The notes under the pieces are model-generated. The model ran no database searches. It was given only the letters and a program-made list of their open reading frames with translations, and had not been told where the DNA came from. 25,474 nucleotides of DNA from a virus. The translations under genes and the position numbers were made by a program. Shown here piece after piece: positions 9,946 to 23,476 of this stretch. Every line of letters begins with the position of its first letter. Positions within the stretch are counted from its first letter, which is position 1. The DNA lies in the IMG/VR virus record IMGVR_UViG_3300042990_000015, positions 1 to 25,474 of that record; one strand, 5' to 3'.

Positions 9946-9980
9946 ACAGTAACACGTTCCTTTTGACGAGTCAAAAGGAA
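9946..9980 (-). promoter_or_regulatory. Leftward promoter overlapped by palindromic operator
   Basis: Minus-strand -35 TTGACT (9969-9974), 17-bp spacer, -10 TACTGT (9946-9951), about 38 bp before ATG 9908. The -35 lies within an 11-bp-arm palindrome, 9957-9967 and 9970-9980 (TTCCTTTTGAC and GTCAAAAGGAA). Similar sites occur at 21794 and 23429-23476. Repressor control is the likely meaning. Confidence 0.75.
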
Positions 9981-10000
9981 TCACTGACGGAGGTGTACCG

Positions 10001-10462
10001 ATGTTCATAGATCACCAACCCTTCCGCTTCACGCCGGCACTGCCGGTCGAGCGGATGAAGACGTACGAGCTGGACGCGCCGCCGGCCACGCACTTCCGCG
10101 CGGCGCCGTGCGAGCACCCTGACGTGACCTGCCAGGCGCACGCGCACGGCTGGTCGACCACGGTGGACATCACGACCGAGCTGGGCCAGCAGCAGGCCAA
10201 CTACATCCGCTCGATGTCTGGTCGGCGCTACGTCGAGGTGCGCGCGGAGGGTGGGCTTACAACCTTCACCTTCGAACCCGGTCAGCGCTGCTTCCGCTCG
10301 GCCGAGCACCGCATCCCGCTGGAGCGCGAGCCCGCGTACCGCGTGCTATATGGCGATTGGCGAGGTAGCGAACTGGCGCGCACGCACGCGCGCGCGGCGG
10401 ACTGGGTGGAGGACTTCGCCGAGCACCAGGACGGCATCAAGACGGCGCGCGAGCGCGGGTAG
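10001..10462 (+). CDS. Conserved-looking tail-module protein, unknown
   Basis: 153 aa, ATG 10001 with GGAGG eight bases upstream, the first rightward gene after the inverted gene. The N-terminal part is rich in His, Cys and Pro (APCEHPDVTCQAHAHGW), a possible metal site. The middle reads QQANYIRSMSGRRYVEVRAEGGLTTFTFEPGQRCFRSAEHRIPLEREPAYRVLYGDWRG, and the end is helical (ADWVEDFAEHQDGIKTARERG). I have the impression this occurs in actinophage tail modules next to the major tail gene, but I cannot name a function. It may be an assembly or connector factor. Confidence 0.7.
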   Translation: MFIDHQPFRFTPALPVERMKTYELDAPPATHFRAAPCEHPDVTCQAHAHGWSTTVDITTELGQQQANYIRSMSGRRYVEVRAEGGLTTFTFEPGQRCFRSAEHRIPLEREPAYRVLYGDWRGSELARTHARAADWVEDFAEHQDGIKTARERG

Positions 10463-20762: not shown

Positions 20763-21641
20763 TCAGTAGCCGGTCGGCGCGTTCACGTACTGCTGTGTGC
20801 CTGCCGGCTGCTGGCCAGCGATCTGCTGGCGCTGCTCCGGCGTCAGGTTCGCCCACACGCTCGCGTCCCACCCCGGGGGAGGGGTAAGCACGGGTGGCTG
20901 GCCCTGAGTGCCCTGCTGCGCCTGCTGTGCGGGCGCTGGGGGCACGAACACGGGTGCCTGGTTACTCGCGTACGTCTGCGCCTGCGGCGCCTGCGGATAC
21001 TGCTGGGCGTACGCGGGCGGGTAGCCGGTGTTCGGCACCTGCCCTTGACTCTGGGTGTTGAGAAGCTGGGGCTCCGGGTTGCGGAACTGCCCAGCCCTGA
21101 ACGCATTCCAGAGCTGGTGCGCGGCGCGGCGGCGCTGCTCGCCGTCCGGCCGGTCTTCCTTGTTGATGGTGCGGTGCGTCTTGGCGATCAGGAACGGCTT
21201 GTTACCGAGCGTTCCCTGCTCGACCACGCCCACGACCAGGCCGCCGATGTTGTCCCGACAGACCTCAACGAAGGCGTCGTTGCCGACGAACACGTTGGTG
21301 AACAGCGCGGGCGTCTCGCTGACGTGCGTGTGCGGGCGCGGGTTGCCACGCTCTTCCGAGTCGCCGTACCTGATCGGTCCGCCGTCAACGACGAAGAGAT
21401 CGAACGTCGCGTTGGGGCGGCGCTGGCCTTCGAACATCGCATTCTCATCCACCCGGATGGGCTTGATGATGACGGTCCGCCCGACCAGGTTGCGCGGCTT
21501 CGGCGAGACGCCGCCACCTCCGCGCGGGTCGCTGAACGGGTCGGCGTTCGGGTCGTCGCTCGGCGGGAAGCCGGGCAGCGGCGCCTGTGGCTGGCCCTGC
21601 GTACCGTAGGGCTGCTGGTACTGGTGCTGTGGCTGTGACAT
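20763..21641 (-). CDS. Early protein with OB-like core and Gln/Pro-rich tail
   Basis: 292 aa, ATG 21641, site AGGAAGAGAG. After a Gln/Pro-rich start, residues about 50-170 form a beta-rich core: LVGRTVIIKPIRVDENAMFEGQRRPNATFDLFVVDGG, then ALFTNVFVGNDAFVEVCRDNIGGLVVGVVEQGTLGNKPFLIAKTHRT. The pattern fits an OB-fold or nucleic-acid-binding protein seen in actinophage early regions. I cannot prove ssDNA binding. The C-terminal 100 residues are Pro/Gln/Ala/Tyr-rich and probably disordered, as in many SSB tails, though the usual acidic tip is missing. It is the last gene of the leftward operon. Confidence 0.75.
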   Translation of the reverse strand: MSQPQHQYQQPYGTQGQPQAPLPGFPPSDDPNADPFSDPRGGGGVSPKPRNLVGRTVIIKPIRVDENAMFEGQRRPNATFDLFVVDGGPIRYGDSEERGNPRPHTHVSETPALFTNVFVGNDAFVEVCRDNIGGLVVGVVEQGTLGNKPFLIAKTHRTINKEDRPDGEQRRRAAHQLWNAFRAGQFRNPEPQLLNTQSQGQVPNTGYPPAYAQQYPQAPQAQTYASNQAPVFVPPAPAQQAQQGTQGQPPVLTPPPGWDASVWANLTPEQRQQIAGQQPAGTQQYVNAPTGY

Positions 21642-21705: not shown

Positions 21706-21782
21706 GTGCTCCATCCGGAATCGAATCCGGTCCCGCCATCGCGGCGCCGCTGGGCGTCTGGTGGGGCAAACCTGCTGGAGCA
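21706..21782 (-). tRNA. tRNA-like cloverleaf D (non-canonical)
   Basis: Minus-strand acceptor TGCTCCA/TGGAGCA is a perfect 7-bp stem (plus 21776-21782 and 21707-21713), 76 nt apart. Between them: GGT/ACC D-like arm; CGCC-CAGC-GGCG in the anticodon position (4-nt loop); CCGC-GATG-GCGG variable arm; T-arm CCGGA-TTCGAT-TCCGG with a 6-nt loop. There is no readable anticodon, no U33, and no encoded CCA. It is either a decayed tRNA or a non-decoding tRNA mimic. Confidence 0.4.
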
Positions 21783-21793
21783 ACCTCACTGTA

Positions 21794-21807
21794 CTTGACG
21801 CGTCAAG
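21794..21807 (-). promoter_or_regulatory. Palindromic operator, candidate -35
   Basis: CTTGAC (21794-21799), GC, GTCAAG (21802-21807), a perfect 6-bp-arm palindrome. The minus-strand TTGACG could be a -35 for the 20763-21641 gene, but the element 17 bp downstream (TTGCTC) is a weak -10. The site overlaps the stop of the 21803 gene. Confidence 0.6.
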
Positions 21808-22054
21808 AGCGTGGCCCTAGCTGGTGCTTCACGCGCCGAAGCTGGCGAGGGGTAAGCCCGAGCAGGCCACCTGTGCCAGTGCGCGGCGCTTCGGTCAGGC
21901 CGTTCTGTCGCCGGTAGTTCGCAACGCGGCGCTCGATCTCCATCGGCGGGGTGTCCTGGCACCTGCCTTCCTTGCGCGCCGTGCGCCTGCTCTCGGCGCG
22001 ATGCCATGCGATCCGCATCGCGCCCGGCATCCGGTTACGCGTCGCTGTCGGCAT
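21803..22054 (-). CDS. Small basic early protein
   Basis: 83 aa, ATG 22054 with a very strong GGGAGGGGAGAG site. Strongly basic (MRIAWHRAESRRTARKEGRCQD). The end is RRVANYRRQNGLTEAPRTGTGGLLGLTPRQLRRVKHQLG, which resembles small actinophage early proteins with a terminal LTPRQ.RR helix, possibly nucleic-acid binding. No defined domain. It overlaps the upstream gene by 20 bp and so is probably co-translated with it. Confidence 0.65.
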   Translation of the reverse strand: MPTATRNRMPGAMRIAWHRAESRRTARKEGRCQDTPPMEIERRVANYRRQNGLTEAPRTGTGGLLGLTPRQLRRVKHQLGPRS

Positions 22055-22196
22055 ACGCTCTCCCCTCCCGTACCGCTTCGCGGATCGCGCGCAGCTTGGC
22101 GTACAACTCCGCGCGTCCCTCCATCTCGCCGTACTCCACGATCAACGTCCCAACCGCGTCGATCAGCAGGCTCAGCTCCTTTTCCGTGAACAACAT
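22035..22196 (-). CDS. 53-aa helical protein
   Basis: I start it at ATG 22196 (MLFTEKELSLLIDAVGTLIV) with GGAGG four nt upstream. A longer frame to 22229 would start inside a tRNA-like T-arm/acceptor and is rejected. The peptide is one amphipathic helix pair (FTEKELSLLIDAVGTLIVEY, then AELYAKLRAIREAVREG). Family not recognised. It may be a small regulator. Confidence 0.6.
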   Translation of the reverse strand: MLFTEKELSLLIDAVGTLIVEYGEMEGRAELYAKLRAIREAVREGRAYADSDA

Positions 22197-22222
22197 CCAT
22201 CCTCCGTCTCGGTCGTGCTTCG

Positions 22223-22319
22223 CGTCCATCCGGGGACTCGAACCCCGGGCCTGGCTCCCTAGCGCACCTCCCGCCGGAGGGGCATCGTTCGCCTGTGCTA
22301 CCGCTTACACCAATGGGTG
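22223..22319 (-). tRNA. tRNA-like element C (poor acceptor, odd anticodon)
   Basis: D-arm GTGT-AAGCGGTA-GCAC preceded by TTG is tRNA-like, and T-arm CGGGG-TTCGAGT-CCCCG (22231-22247) is canonical. The anticodon position allows only GGC-GAACGAT-GCC (three pairs, no U33), and a CCTCC-GGCG-GGAGG hairpin follows as a variable arm. Acceptor pairing CACCCAT/GATGGAC is poor. Either a decayed tRNA or a tRNA mimic. Confidence 0.45.
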
Positions 22320-22360
22320 GATGCCCGCGCTTGGATGCGACTCCCGCATGCGTACTTCCG

Positions 22361-22432
22361 TGCCACTGCGAGGATTCGAACCCCGCGTCCTGCCCCGGGT
22401 GGGGCATGTCCGTGCCATCCGGACCGAGTGGC
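22361..22432 (-). tRNA. tRNA-like element B, 72 nt
   Basis: Acceptor GCCACTC/CAGTGGC pairs 6 of 7; D-arm TCCG-GATGGCA-CGGA (or GTCC/GGAC); T-arm CGGGG-TTCGAAT-CCTCG; discriminator A, no encoded CCA. The total of 72 nt is normal for a tRNA. The anticodon arm, however, folds best as TGCCCC-ACCC-GGGGCA. In the canonical register only two of five pairs form, and position 33 is not U, so no anticodon can be assigned. Confidence 0.5.
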
Positions 22433-22507
22433 GGCGCGCTCCACACGCGCCAGGCTTGCACTTCACCATCGGGAGGTGGAGACACCCTCCGGCTGTACCT
22501 TGCCCGT

Positions 22508-22598
22508 TGGTGCCGGGGGCTCGATCCCCCGGTCGTCCGCCTAATCCAGTCCCGTCACCTGTTGTCAGGTGCTCGCCGTGACCGTTCACGGATCACCA
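22508..22598 (-). tRNA. tRNA-like cloverleaf A, 91 nt
   Basis: Acceptor TGGTG/CACCA (plus 22594-22598 with 22508-22512), a 2-nt linker, hairpin CCGTGA-ACGG-TCACGG in the D position, hairpin CACCTG-ACAA-CAGGTG in the anticodon position, a 23-nt variable region, then CCGGGGG-ATCGAG-CCCCCGG abutting the acceptor as a T-arm. The layout is tRNA-like with a long variable region, but the anticodon loop is 4 nt (6 if one pair opens). A further hairpin GGCGCG/CGCGCC (22433-22451) sits between A and B. Confidence 0.4.
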
Positions 22599-22605
22599 TC
22601 TTGTG

Positions 22606-22797
22606 CTACCGGCCGCTACCCTCGCCGGCTTCGCCCGCGCCGAGCTGCTGTTGCTCGGTACGACCAGTCGTGATGCGGTAACCGCTCTTGTCGCCGGTCA
22701 CCGTCGCCTCGCGACCTCTGGTTGGGTCGTCCGCCCGGTGCTTGCCGTGGTAAGCACCGCTGTCGCCGGTCTTTCCGCTGTCGTGCTTGTCGCTCAT
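22606..22797 (-). CDS. 63-aa hydrophilic protein
   Basis: ATG 22797 with AAGGAG that overlaps the end of the upstream gene. It is very polar (MSDKHDSGKTGDSGAYHGKHRADD), with a short strand-like TVTGDKSGYRITTGRTEQQQ and a Gly-rich end. It is probably disordered. No family recognised. It is kept because the ribosome site and close packing support translation. Confidence 0.55.
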   Translation of the reverse strand: MSDKHDSGKTGDSGAYHGKHRADDPTRGREATVTGDKSGYRITTGRTEQQQLGAGEAGEGSGR

Positions 22798-22806
22798 GTG
22801 CGCTCC

Positions 22807-23400
22807 TTACAGATCCTCGGTGGCAATCAGGTCTTCCAGTCGGTACCAGTCATCGATCAGCCGGCCGGACACGTACGCCCGCTTGCCGTCTTCGCTGATC
22901 TCCGAGATGACACCCGCGTCGCCGCCTTCGCCGTTGTCGTCAACGTCGGGAGCGGTGAACACGTCTTCCAGGGTGAGGCTCGCGCGCTGTGCCTGCTCCA
23001 GCGTCATGCCCTTGGGCATCGCTTCCAGCGTGAAGAGGTAGAACTTGAAGCCGGGTGCCTTCTGGTTCAGGTACGCGACGCTGGTGTGCTCCTTTTCGTC
23101 TGCTGTCACGTACTCGGCGCGGACGTACAGGCTGCCGTAGATCTCATCCACCAGCACATCGGAGGTGACGCGGATCGTGGTGCCGGGAGCAGAGCGGAAG
23201 CGAAGGACGGTCCCCGGCGCGACCGGACCGGCGTTGAGTACCGCTTGCTCCTTGGCGATCCGCTCGGCTTCCCAGACGGCGCGCACGGCGGCCAGCAGCT
23301 CGACGCCGGTCATCTTGCTGCGGCCAGGAAGCTTGTACTCCTTGGCGTAGGTGCGCAGCTCGGTGATCCCGTATCCCTCGAACAGCTTCCGCGCGGCCAT
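22807..23400 (-). CDS. SAP-like-domain early protein
   Basis: 197 aa. ATG 23400 has AAGGAG; a longer frame to 23469 crosses the operator and is rejected. Residues about 10-45 (YGITELRTYAKEYKLPGRSKMTGVELLAAVRAVWEAER) match a SAP or Rho-N-type helix-turn-helix used for DNA or RNA binding. Residues about 65-110 are a small beta domain (TVLRFRSAPGTTIRVTSDVLV, then YGSLYVRAEYVT). The rest is acidic. It is the first gene after the strong operator-promoter at 23429-23476, so it is probably an early or immediate-early protein. Function unknown. Confidence 0.75.
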   Translation of the reverse strand: MAARKLFEGYGITELRTYAKEYKLPGRSKMTGVELLAAVRAVWEAERIAKEQAVLNAGPVAPGTVLRFRSAPGTTIRVTSDVLVDEIYGSLYVRAEYVTADEKEHTSVAYLNQKAPGFKFYLFTLEAMPKGMTLEQAQRASLTLEDVFTAPDVDDNGEGGDAGVISEISEDGKRAYVSGRLIDDWYRLEDLIATEDL

Positions 23401-23428
23401 CTCGATCTCCTTGGTTCTGAGGAACTTG

Positions 23429-23476
23429 CTTGAGATGTCAAGGTAGCACGATTCCTCTTGACGTGTCAAAAGGAAT
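23429..23476 (-). promoter_or_regulatory. Leftward promoter with tandem operators
   Basis: The main palindrome has arms ATTCCTCTTGAC (23451-23462) and GTCAAAAGGAAT (23465-23476), 12 bp with one mismatch. A weaker copy, CTTGAG/GTCAAG, is at 23429-23442, centre 28 bp away. Minus-strand -35 TTGACA (23464-23469), 18-bp spacer, -10 TACCTT (23440-23445). Two sites on one promoter suggest cooperative repression. Confidence 0.75.

What the first reader, a model, noticed from the sequence alone, without database searches (positions are those of the whole stretch)
21706..22598. Cluster of tRNA-like cloverleaves with collapsed anticodon arms
Four minus-strand elements (A 22508-22598, B 22361-22432, C 22223-22319, D 21706-21782) keep tRNA-like T-arms or acceptor stems (canonical TTCGAGT and TTCGAAT loops in C and B; a perfect 7-bp acceptor in D). 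Where the anticodon arm should be, the best fold is a tight hairpin with a 4-nt loop: ACAA, ACCC, GGCG, CAGC. Position 33 is never U. Ordinary decay would not be expected to give the same kind of change in all four. A class of non-decoding tRNA mimics, for example decoys for host tRNA-cleaving defence nucleases or for tRNA-processing enzymes, is a testable idea. Caution: GC-rich DNA forms hairpins easily, and some arms are weak.
Basis: partly seen in the sequence, partly recalled or inferred. Interest (0 to 1): 0.8.

Follow-up and report, generated by a model that had tools for sequence, protein, structure and literature searches.

The report
tRNA-elbow leader RNAs in actinophages
The odd tRNA-shaped sequences in this phage fragment cannot decode codons; they most likely belong to an unannotated family of miniature tRNA-like RNAs that many phages of Actinobacteria place just upstream of their early genes, probably to be read by a host tRNA-handling enzyme such as RNase P.

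Summary
B is a clean cloverleaf with a 6-bp/4-nt hairpin where the anticodon arm belongs (0/200 shuffles match it). C has a perfect T-arm and a tRNA-like D-arm, but a homologue shows that its tetraloop hairpin lies in the variable region. A and D have defective T-loops and are weaker. ARAGORN and Rfam call no tRNA. Following C's T-arm led to a larger finding. Likavirus, Yosifvirus, Konstantinevirus and several Gordonia, Mycobacterium and Corynebacterium phages, plus two capsid relatives of this phage, carry up to ten copies per genome of a ~40-nt element: 5-7-bp acceptor-like stem, D-loop-like GG strand, perfect T-arm, then 3' AC. I collected 154 distinct sequences. They covary strongly, including three tertiary pairs that were not selected for. 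In four genomes, 31 of 33 are wholly intergenic, 33 of 33 are co-directional, and most end ~35-50 nt before a start codon. A Likavirus-type pattern is absent from 84,980 cellular genomes. A capsid relative carries both a mini element and a B-like cloverleaf with a 4-nt loop. Best reading: non-decoding tRNA-elbow leader RNAs, most likely RNase P sites or 5'-end structures of early mRNAs. Decoy function is not supported. The mechanism is inferred, not shown.

The parts
22362..22432 (-). Element B: cloverleaf. P1 GCCACT 22427-22432 / AGTGGC 22362-22367; D-arm 22408-22424 (loop GATGGCA); anticodon-position hairpin TGCCCC-ACCC-GGGGCA 22391-22406; T-arm 22368-22386 (TTCGAAT); 3' flank ACG 22359-22361
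   Evidence: best R2 hit in the whole window, 22.1 bits
22223..22325 (-). Element C: T-arm 22230-22248 (TTCGAGT); D-arm GTGTAAGCGGTAGCAC 22295-22310; GGC-GAACGAT-GCC 22281-22293; tetraloop hairpin CCTCC-GGCG-GGAGG 22267-22280 in the variable region; weak acceptor
   Evidence: homologue L036:9946-10056; best R1 hit in the window, 23.7 bits, T-arm only; matches leader elements of Streptomyces phages
22505..22598 (-). Element A: begins 7 nt after the upstream stop codon; hairpin 22513-22532 resembling a T-arm with loop ATCGAG; P1 either TGGTG 22594-22598 / CACCA 22508-22512 or GGTG 22556-22559 / CACC 22509-22512; 3' flank AC
   Evidence: second-best R1 hit in the window, 19.3 bits; 87% identity over 30 nt to a mini element in L056; z -3.3; T-loop defective
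21706..21782 (-). Element D: P1 TGCTCCA 21776-21782 / TGGAGCA 21708-21714; GCA-GGTT-TGC 21766-21775; CGCC-CAGC-GGCG 21745-21756; T-arm-like CCGGA-TTCGAT-TCCGG 21716-21731 with 6-nt loop; 3' flank ACG if P1 is taken as 6 bp
   Evidence: weak by model (10.8 bits); D-like structures in 5/200 shuffles
20763..21641 (-). 292-aa gene whose leader holds D (start codon ~66 nt after D)
   Evidence: no Pfam hit
22035..22196 (-). 53-aa gene with GGAGG before ATG; start ~29-33 nt after C; its leader holds C
   Evidence: sequence inspection
22606..22797 (-). 63-aa gene upstream of A; stop codon 7 nt before A

Best explanation
The cluster consists of non-decoding tRNA-elbow RNAs, larger relatives of a widespread, unannotated family of ~40-nt leader elements in phages of Actinobacteria. 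Each element keeps the half of a tRNA that tRNA-processing enzymes read: acceptor-like stem stacked on the T-stem (11-12 bp in the mini elements), T-loop, D-loop-like GG strand, and 3' R73-C74. The D-stem and anticodon arm are absent or replaced by any short hairpin, which is why the anticodon arm looks collapsed. The elements act in cis in early polycistronic mRNA. Most likely host RNase P (perhaps with RNase Z) recognises them and cuts at the first G of the acceptor stem, so that a message, whether started at its own promoter or read through from upstream, begins with the same compact RNA. Shown: structure, covariation, position, phage restriction for the pattern tested. Inferred: RNase P, the cleavage, and the benefit (separating or stabilising early messages).
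For: 26 aligned elements: 338/338 cells paired, 9 pairs changed on both sides. Selection without any pairing: 138 of 505 windows form all 11 pairs, bimodal against background, and three tertiary pairs are Watson-Crick in 95% against 26-34% background. A second model shows the same. 154 distinct elements; P1+T-stem is 11 bp in 130 and 12 bp in 24. G1-C72 in 141/147, purine 73 in 142/147, C74 in 140/147. 33 elements in four genomes: 31 wholly intergenic, 33 co-directional, most ending 33-57 nt before the next start; 0.01 expected per shuffled genome. Konstantine: seven, 45-52 nt before starts. Promoter-like -10 ends 2-14 nt before P1 in 13/24, background 0.9%. 48 viral stretches but 0 in 84,980 genomes; 143 phage records. 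Link to the window: L103/L109 (capsid 49.5%) has a mini element and a 4-nt-loop cloverleaf 42 nt before a start; Dagobah (capsid 46%) has two; B tops R2, C and A top R1 in the window. RNase P cleaves acceptor/T-stem-loop hairpins, reads 3' RCC (PMC11143913) and measures a fixed distance from the elbow (PMC4919913).
Against: No RNA data. Window elements score low with the mini-element models (10.8-23.7 bits; chance hits in the same window reach 16). C's homologue in L036 appears to stand alone rather than in a leader. A, B and C lie in one gap, unlike the one-per-gap rule. T-loops of A and D are defective. No full CCA follows the acceptor (ACT or ACG), so pairing with RNase P RNA would be partial. 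Many capsid relatives (G001-G004, G006-G013) show no element, though they are fragments.
Confidence: 0.5

Rival explanations
1. Same family of cis-acting leader RNAs, but not an RNase P site: the compact tRNA-like structure protects mRNA 5' ends, blocks Rho in untranslated gaps, binds RNA polymerase like the put sites of HK022, or tunes translation.
For: Position relative to start codons and promoter-like -10 sites; no T-run follows the elements, so they are not intrinsic terminators (sequence inspection).
Against: Does not explain why a tRNA elbow in particular (T-loop, GG, G1-C72, R73-C74, 11-12 bp stack) is conserved.
Confidence: 0.25
2. A decaying cluster of former phage tRNA genes: B and C were tRNAs that lost their anticodon arms, A and D are further gone.
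For: C has a tRNA-like D-arm; A and D have defective T-loops; phages do carry tRNA arrays, and G030 has both real tRNAs and mini elements.
Against: B is fully paired outside the anticodon loop; C and its homologue changed three T-stem pairs with compensation (sequence comparison); a 4-nt-loop cloverleaf recurs in L103 at the leader position.
Confidence: 0.15
3. Trans-acting decoys or mimics for tRNA-cleaving defence nucleases or tRNA-processing enzymes.
For: Non-decoding cloverleaves; an excised ~40-nt RNA could act in trans.
Against: Fixed position before start codons, co-direction with the gene, usually one per gap; most lack an anticodon arm, the target of many tRNA nucleases (general knowledge).
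Confidence: 0.06
4. Chance hairpins in GC-rich DNA, at least for A and D.
For: D-like structures in 5 of 200 shuffles; low model scores for D.
Against: B unmatched in 200 shuffles; C and A rank first and second with R1, B first with R2 among all 25 kb; A is 87% identical to a mini element over 30 nt.
Confidence: 0.04

Closest known systems
RNase P model substrates (acceptor stem + T-stem-loop hairpins) and non-tRNA RNase P substrates (PMC11143913, PMC4919913)
   Same: Acceptor/T-stem stack near 12 bp, T-loop, G1-C72, 3' R-C
   Different: The best-known model substrates are artificial; here a natural, repeated, phage-encoded series in mRNA leaders; cleavage untested; no complete CCA
mascRNA-menRNA (Rfam RF01684)
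   Same: Small cloverleaf-like non-decoding RNA; best Rfam match (20.0-20.7 bits for B and C, 26.9 for a Caliburn element)
   Different: Far below the gathering score of 42.5; animal nuclear RNA; no evident homology
tmRNA tRNA-like domain
   Same: Acceptor + T-arm with reduced D-arm and no anticodon arm (general knowledge)
   Different: No tag reading frame or tmRNA pseudoknots; ARAGORN calls none
tRNA-like structures at the 3' ends of plant RNA viruses
   Same: Viral non-decoding tRNA mimics (general knowledge)
   Different: Those are 3'-terminal in RNA genomes; these are internal leader elements of DNA phages
Phage tRNA genes
   Same: Cloverleaf in B and C; T-arm consensus
   Different: No U33 or 7-nt anticodon loop in B; not called by ARAGORN or RF00005
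Stoperators (cluster A mycobacteriophages)
   Same: Repeated intergenic elements oriented with transcription (PMC3029335)
   Different: 13-bp repressor-binding DNA sites, not covarying RNA

Membership tests
Decoding tRNA | Called by ARAGORN or the RF00005 covariance model | tested here: not met
Decoding tRNA | 7-nt anticodon loop with U33 | tested here: not met
   B has a 4-nt (or 6-nt) loop; C in its homologous register has GAACGAT without U33
mascRNA-menRNA RF01684 | Score above gathering threshold 42.5 | tested here: not met
   20.7 and 20.0 bits; 26.9 bits for the Caliburn element
tmRNA | Tag reading frame and tmRNA architecture | tested here: not met
   ARAGORN finds no tmRNA in the window
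Actinophage tRNA-elbow leader element (family described here) | T-arm with 7-nt loop TTCRANN, stem >=5 bp | tested here: inconclusive
   Met by B and C; A and D have defective loops
Actinophage tRNA-elbow leader element (family described here) | Acceptor-like stem >=5 bp stacked on the T-stem, then R-C | tested here: inconclusive
   Met by B (6 bp, ACG); D 7 bp with a 1-nt spacer; A 5 bp with a 6-nt T-loop; C weak
Actinophage tRNA-elbow leader element (family described here) | D-like strand or hairpin with GG | tested here: met
   GATGGCA (B), AAGCGGTAGC (C), ACGG (A), GGTT (D) (sequence inspection)
Actinophage tRNA-elbow leader element (family described here) | Intergenic, co-directional, before an early-gene start codon | tested here: inconclusive
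   C ~30 nt and D ~66 nt before starts, A 7 nt after a stop; A, B and C share one gap and B has no gene of its own
Actinophage tRNA-elbow leader element (family described here) | Clear hit of family models R1 or R2 | tested here: inconclusive
   B 22.1 (R2), C 23.7 (R1), A 19.3 (R1), D 10.8 bits (R2); chance hits reach 16
RNase P substrate | Cleavage 5' of the acceptor stem | not testable with these tools
   Needs an in vitro assay or 5'-end mapping
RNase P substrate | Acceptor + T-stem stack near 12 bp, R73-C74 | tested here: met
   B is 6+6 bp followed by AC; family 11-12 bp, R73/C74 95-97%

The most novel reading that the evidence does not exclude
Phages of Actinobacteria encode a distinct RNA family: serial miniature tRNA elbows (acceptor stem, D-loop strand and T-arm with a 2-bp pseudoknot into the T-loop) that recruit the host's RNase P to cut early polycistronic mRNAs into messages with identical tRNA-like 5' ends, a viral counterpart of mitochondrial tRNA punctuation. 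Full-size cloverleaves with dummy anticodon hairpins, as in this window, are elaborated members.
Probability: 0.4. Interest if true: 0.9.

Novelty: new variant of a known kind. Interest (0 to 1): 0.8.

Why it matters
Well over a hundred sequenced phages, many of them widely used reference genomes, carry a strongly covarying RNA element that has no Rfam model, no annotation in the records inspected and no paper that I could find. It makes three questions testable in ordinary laboratory strains: how actinophage early mRNAs are processed, how little of a tRNA is enough for tRNA enzymes in a natural transcript, and whether phages use RNase P for mRNA maturation. It also gives a practical annotation rule.

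Tried and rejected
Normal tRNAs in another register: none called by ARAGORN or RF00005. Close relatives by neighbouring proteins: the 292-aa and 220-aa genes have no relatives found. Exact-pattern search for B's anticodon-position hairpin in viral contigs: nothing. C-type pattern in genomes: nothing; in viral contigs only the L036 contig. Plasmids: one short Nocardia match. Host-genome copies of the Likavirus pattern: none. attP-type 3' tRNA halves: rejected because the elements occur in series with different stems and, in Caliburn, more than 5 kb from the integrase gene. Intrinsic terminators: no T-run. Capsid relatives G001-G004 and G006-G013 gave no element with R2. A joint alignment of both element types put P1 in two registers, so a separate model was made for the 6-bp type. 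ORF reading of the A-C gap: a 54-codon ORF runs through B; I judged it unremarkable by eye, did not test it, and it is not excluded.

Full report
WHAT IS IN THE WINDOW. The window is a 25,474-bp viral contig with a tailed-phage head and tail module. Its major capsid protein is 46% identical to that of Streptomyces phage Dagobah. The four sequences lie on the minus strand among small minus-strand genes. ARAGORN finds no tRNA; Rfam has no gathering hit and no RF00005 hit at E<=10. The nearest Rfam model is mascRNA-menRNA, 20.7 bits for C and 20.0 for B against a threshold of 42.5. B is a textbook cloverleaf except that a 6-bp stem with an ACCC loop stands where the anticodon arm belongs; no shuffle matched its three-arm score (0/200). 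C has a perfect T-arm and a tRNA-like D-arm. D has a 7-bp acceptor and a GG-looped D hairpin, but a 6-nt T-loop. A has a T-arm-like hairpin that lacks U54.

CORRECTION TO THE READING OF C. Contig IMGVR_UViG_2639762615 (L036), whose capsid is a relative of the window's (44%), holds a homologue at 9946-10056. It has an 8-bp acceptor, the same D-arm, the same GCGAAC stretch and a T-arm whose sequence differs but still pairs. In that register C's third arm is GGC-GAACGAT-GCC, a 7-nt loop without U33, and the GGCG tetraloop hairpin belongs to the variable region. So the claim that all four share one collapsed anticodon arm does not hold.

THE LARGER FAMILY. A distant search with A-C hit 62 Streptomyces phage records, in the rows inspected in unannotated gaps and at C's 3' half. 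Reading three of these genomes showed 7-10 copies each of a ~40-nt element, all on the strand of the early genes. Consensus: GGGTG-ACCGGCAGACA-CCNGGG-TTCGAGT-CCCNGG-CACCC-ACT. That is a 5-bp acceptor-like stem P1, an 11-nt strand resembling a tRNA D-loop (A14-N15-Y-G18-G19-C-A21-N48), a 6-bp T-stem, a canonical T-loop, P1', and A73-C74. On 26 sequences all 338 pair cells are standard, with 9 pairs changed on both sides. P1 and T-stem pairing was used to select those sequences, so the test was repeated with selection on GG and TTCRA spacing alone: 505 windows fall into a background centred on 4 of 11 pairs and a peak of 138 with all 11. Three further contacts that were never selected for are Watson-Crick in 95% of 147 elements against 26-34% in background: N15-N48, and two pairs between the strand before the T-stem and the last two T-loop bases (a small pseudoknot). 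The first two of these contacts show all four Watson-Crick types.

BREADTH. A pattern for the element hits 48 stretches of viral contigs, many with series, and none of 84,980 bacterial and archaeal genomes. One Caliburn element alone matches 143 phage records and 665 places in Streptomyces, Mycobacterium and Gordonia phages. A second type with strand GATGGTCG and mostly 6-bp P1 was found, from the L103 element, in Dagobah and in Mycobacterium, Gordonia, Corynebacterium and Arthrobacter phages; it covaries too, and its model R2 also detects the first type. Rfam has no family at threshold for either.

POSITION. Of 33 elements in Caliburn, Sujidade, Yosif and Aleemily, 31 are wholly intergenic, all 33 are co-directional with the next gene, and most end 33-57 nt before its start codon. 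They occupy 31 of 43 gaps of at least 60 nt in the early arms (10/12, 7/9, 8/10, 6/12) and none of 10 such gaps elsewhere in Caliburn. Seven in Konstantine lie 45-52 nt before starts. In 13 of 24 Likavirus-type elements a TGTGNNANNNT promoter-like -10 ends 2-14 nt before P1 (background 0.9%); most of the others follow a stop codon closely. The base before P1 is A in 129 of 147. The element therefore marks or forms the 5' end of the message.

LINK BACK TO THE WINDOW. Contig G028 (L103/L109) has a capsid 49.5% and a protease 45.6% identical to the window's. It carries a mini element and, 42 nt before a GTG start, a 65-nt cloverleaf: 6-bp P1, D hairpin with GGTTGG, 7-bp hairpin with 4-nt loop in the anticodon position, T-arm, ACT (z -4.4). 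This independently reproduces the architecture of B. Arthrobacter phage Reedo has a 73-nt tRNA-sized element 37 nt before DNA polymerase I. Dagobah has two mini elements. Models trained without the window put C (23.7 bits) and A (19.3) first with R1 and B (22.1) first with R2 among all 25 kb, but chance hits in the window reach 16 bits. Membership is therefore probable for B and C, possible for A, weak for D.

MECHANISM. Shown: a conserved tRNA-elbow structure in early leaders, phage-restricted for the pattern tested. RNase P is the best candidate because it cleaves hairpins made only of acceptor stem, T-stem and T-loop, pairs with the 3' RCC, and measures a fixed distance from the elbow (PMC11143913; PMC4919913); the elements keep an 11-12-bp stack, G1-C72, R73 and C74. 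RNase P cleavage would give read-through messages the same 5' end that promoter-born messages have. It has not been tested, and roles in mRNA protection, antitermination or translation remain open. A decoy role in trans is disfavoured by the fixed cis position.

NOVELTY. Ten full-text searches found no description; most subscription papers are not held, so this is not proof. tRNA-like structures as such are known, hence 'new variant of a known kind'.

Noticed in passing
L051:41674-41756 (-) and L052:41867-41958 (-): Two Likavirus/Yosifvirus gaps without a standard element hold a similar one with T-loop TGCAAGN instead of TTCGAGN, keeping U54 and A58, followed by ACT; possibly a third subtype.
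   Followed up: no
L036:9946-10056: Homologue of element C in another contig, apparently standing alone rather than in a leader: 8-bp acceptor, long variable region, non-decoding third arm. May be a separate tRNA-like gene type.
   Followed up: partly
L055:6409-6496: ARAGORN calls a tRNA with a 4-base anticodon (gtgc) in a contig that also carries mini elements.
   Followed up: no
L134:5774-6044 and L129:2984-3142: Near-identical elements in tandem (three in Gordonia phage Trine overlapping an annotated CDS, two in one gap of MakoManhole), unlike the one-per-gap rule.
   Followed up: no
Halorubrum tailed viruses (H154-H158): 20-nt exact matches to the T-arm half of a mini element in unannotated DNA of archaeal viruses; could be unannotated tRNAs or a similar element.
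   Followed up: no
L122 (contig G030): A 100-kb viral contig with an array of more than 15 normal-looking phage tRNAs also carries mini elements, so both coexist.
   Followed up: partly
window 22807-23469 (-): 220-aa protein upstream of the cluster with a sub-threshold Rho_N match (E 0.0045).
   Followed up: no
L109:8200-8380 (-): Downstream of the mini element in the capsid relative G028, variants of ATGTGGGCTGAGCCCTGG are repeated three times before the next gene.
   Followed up: no
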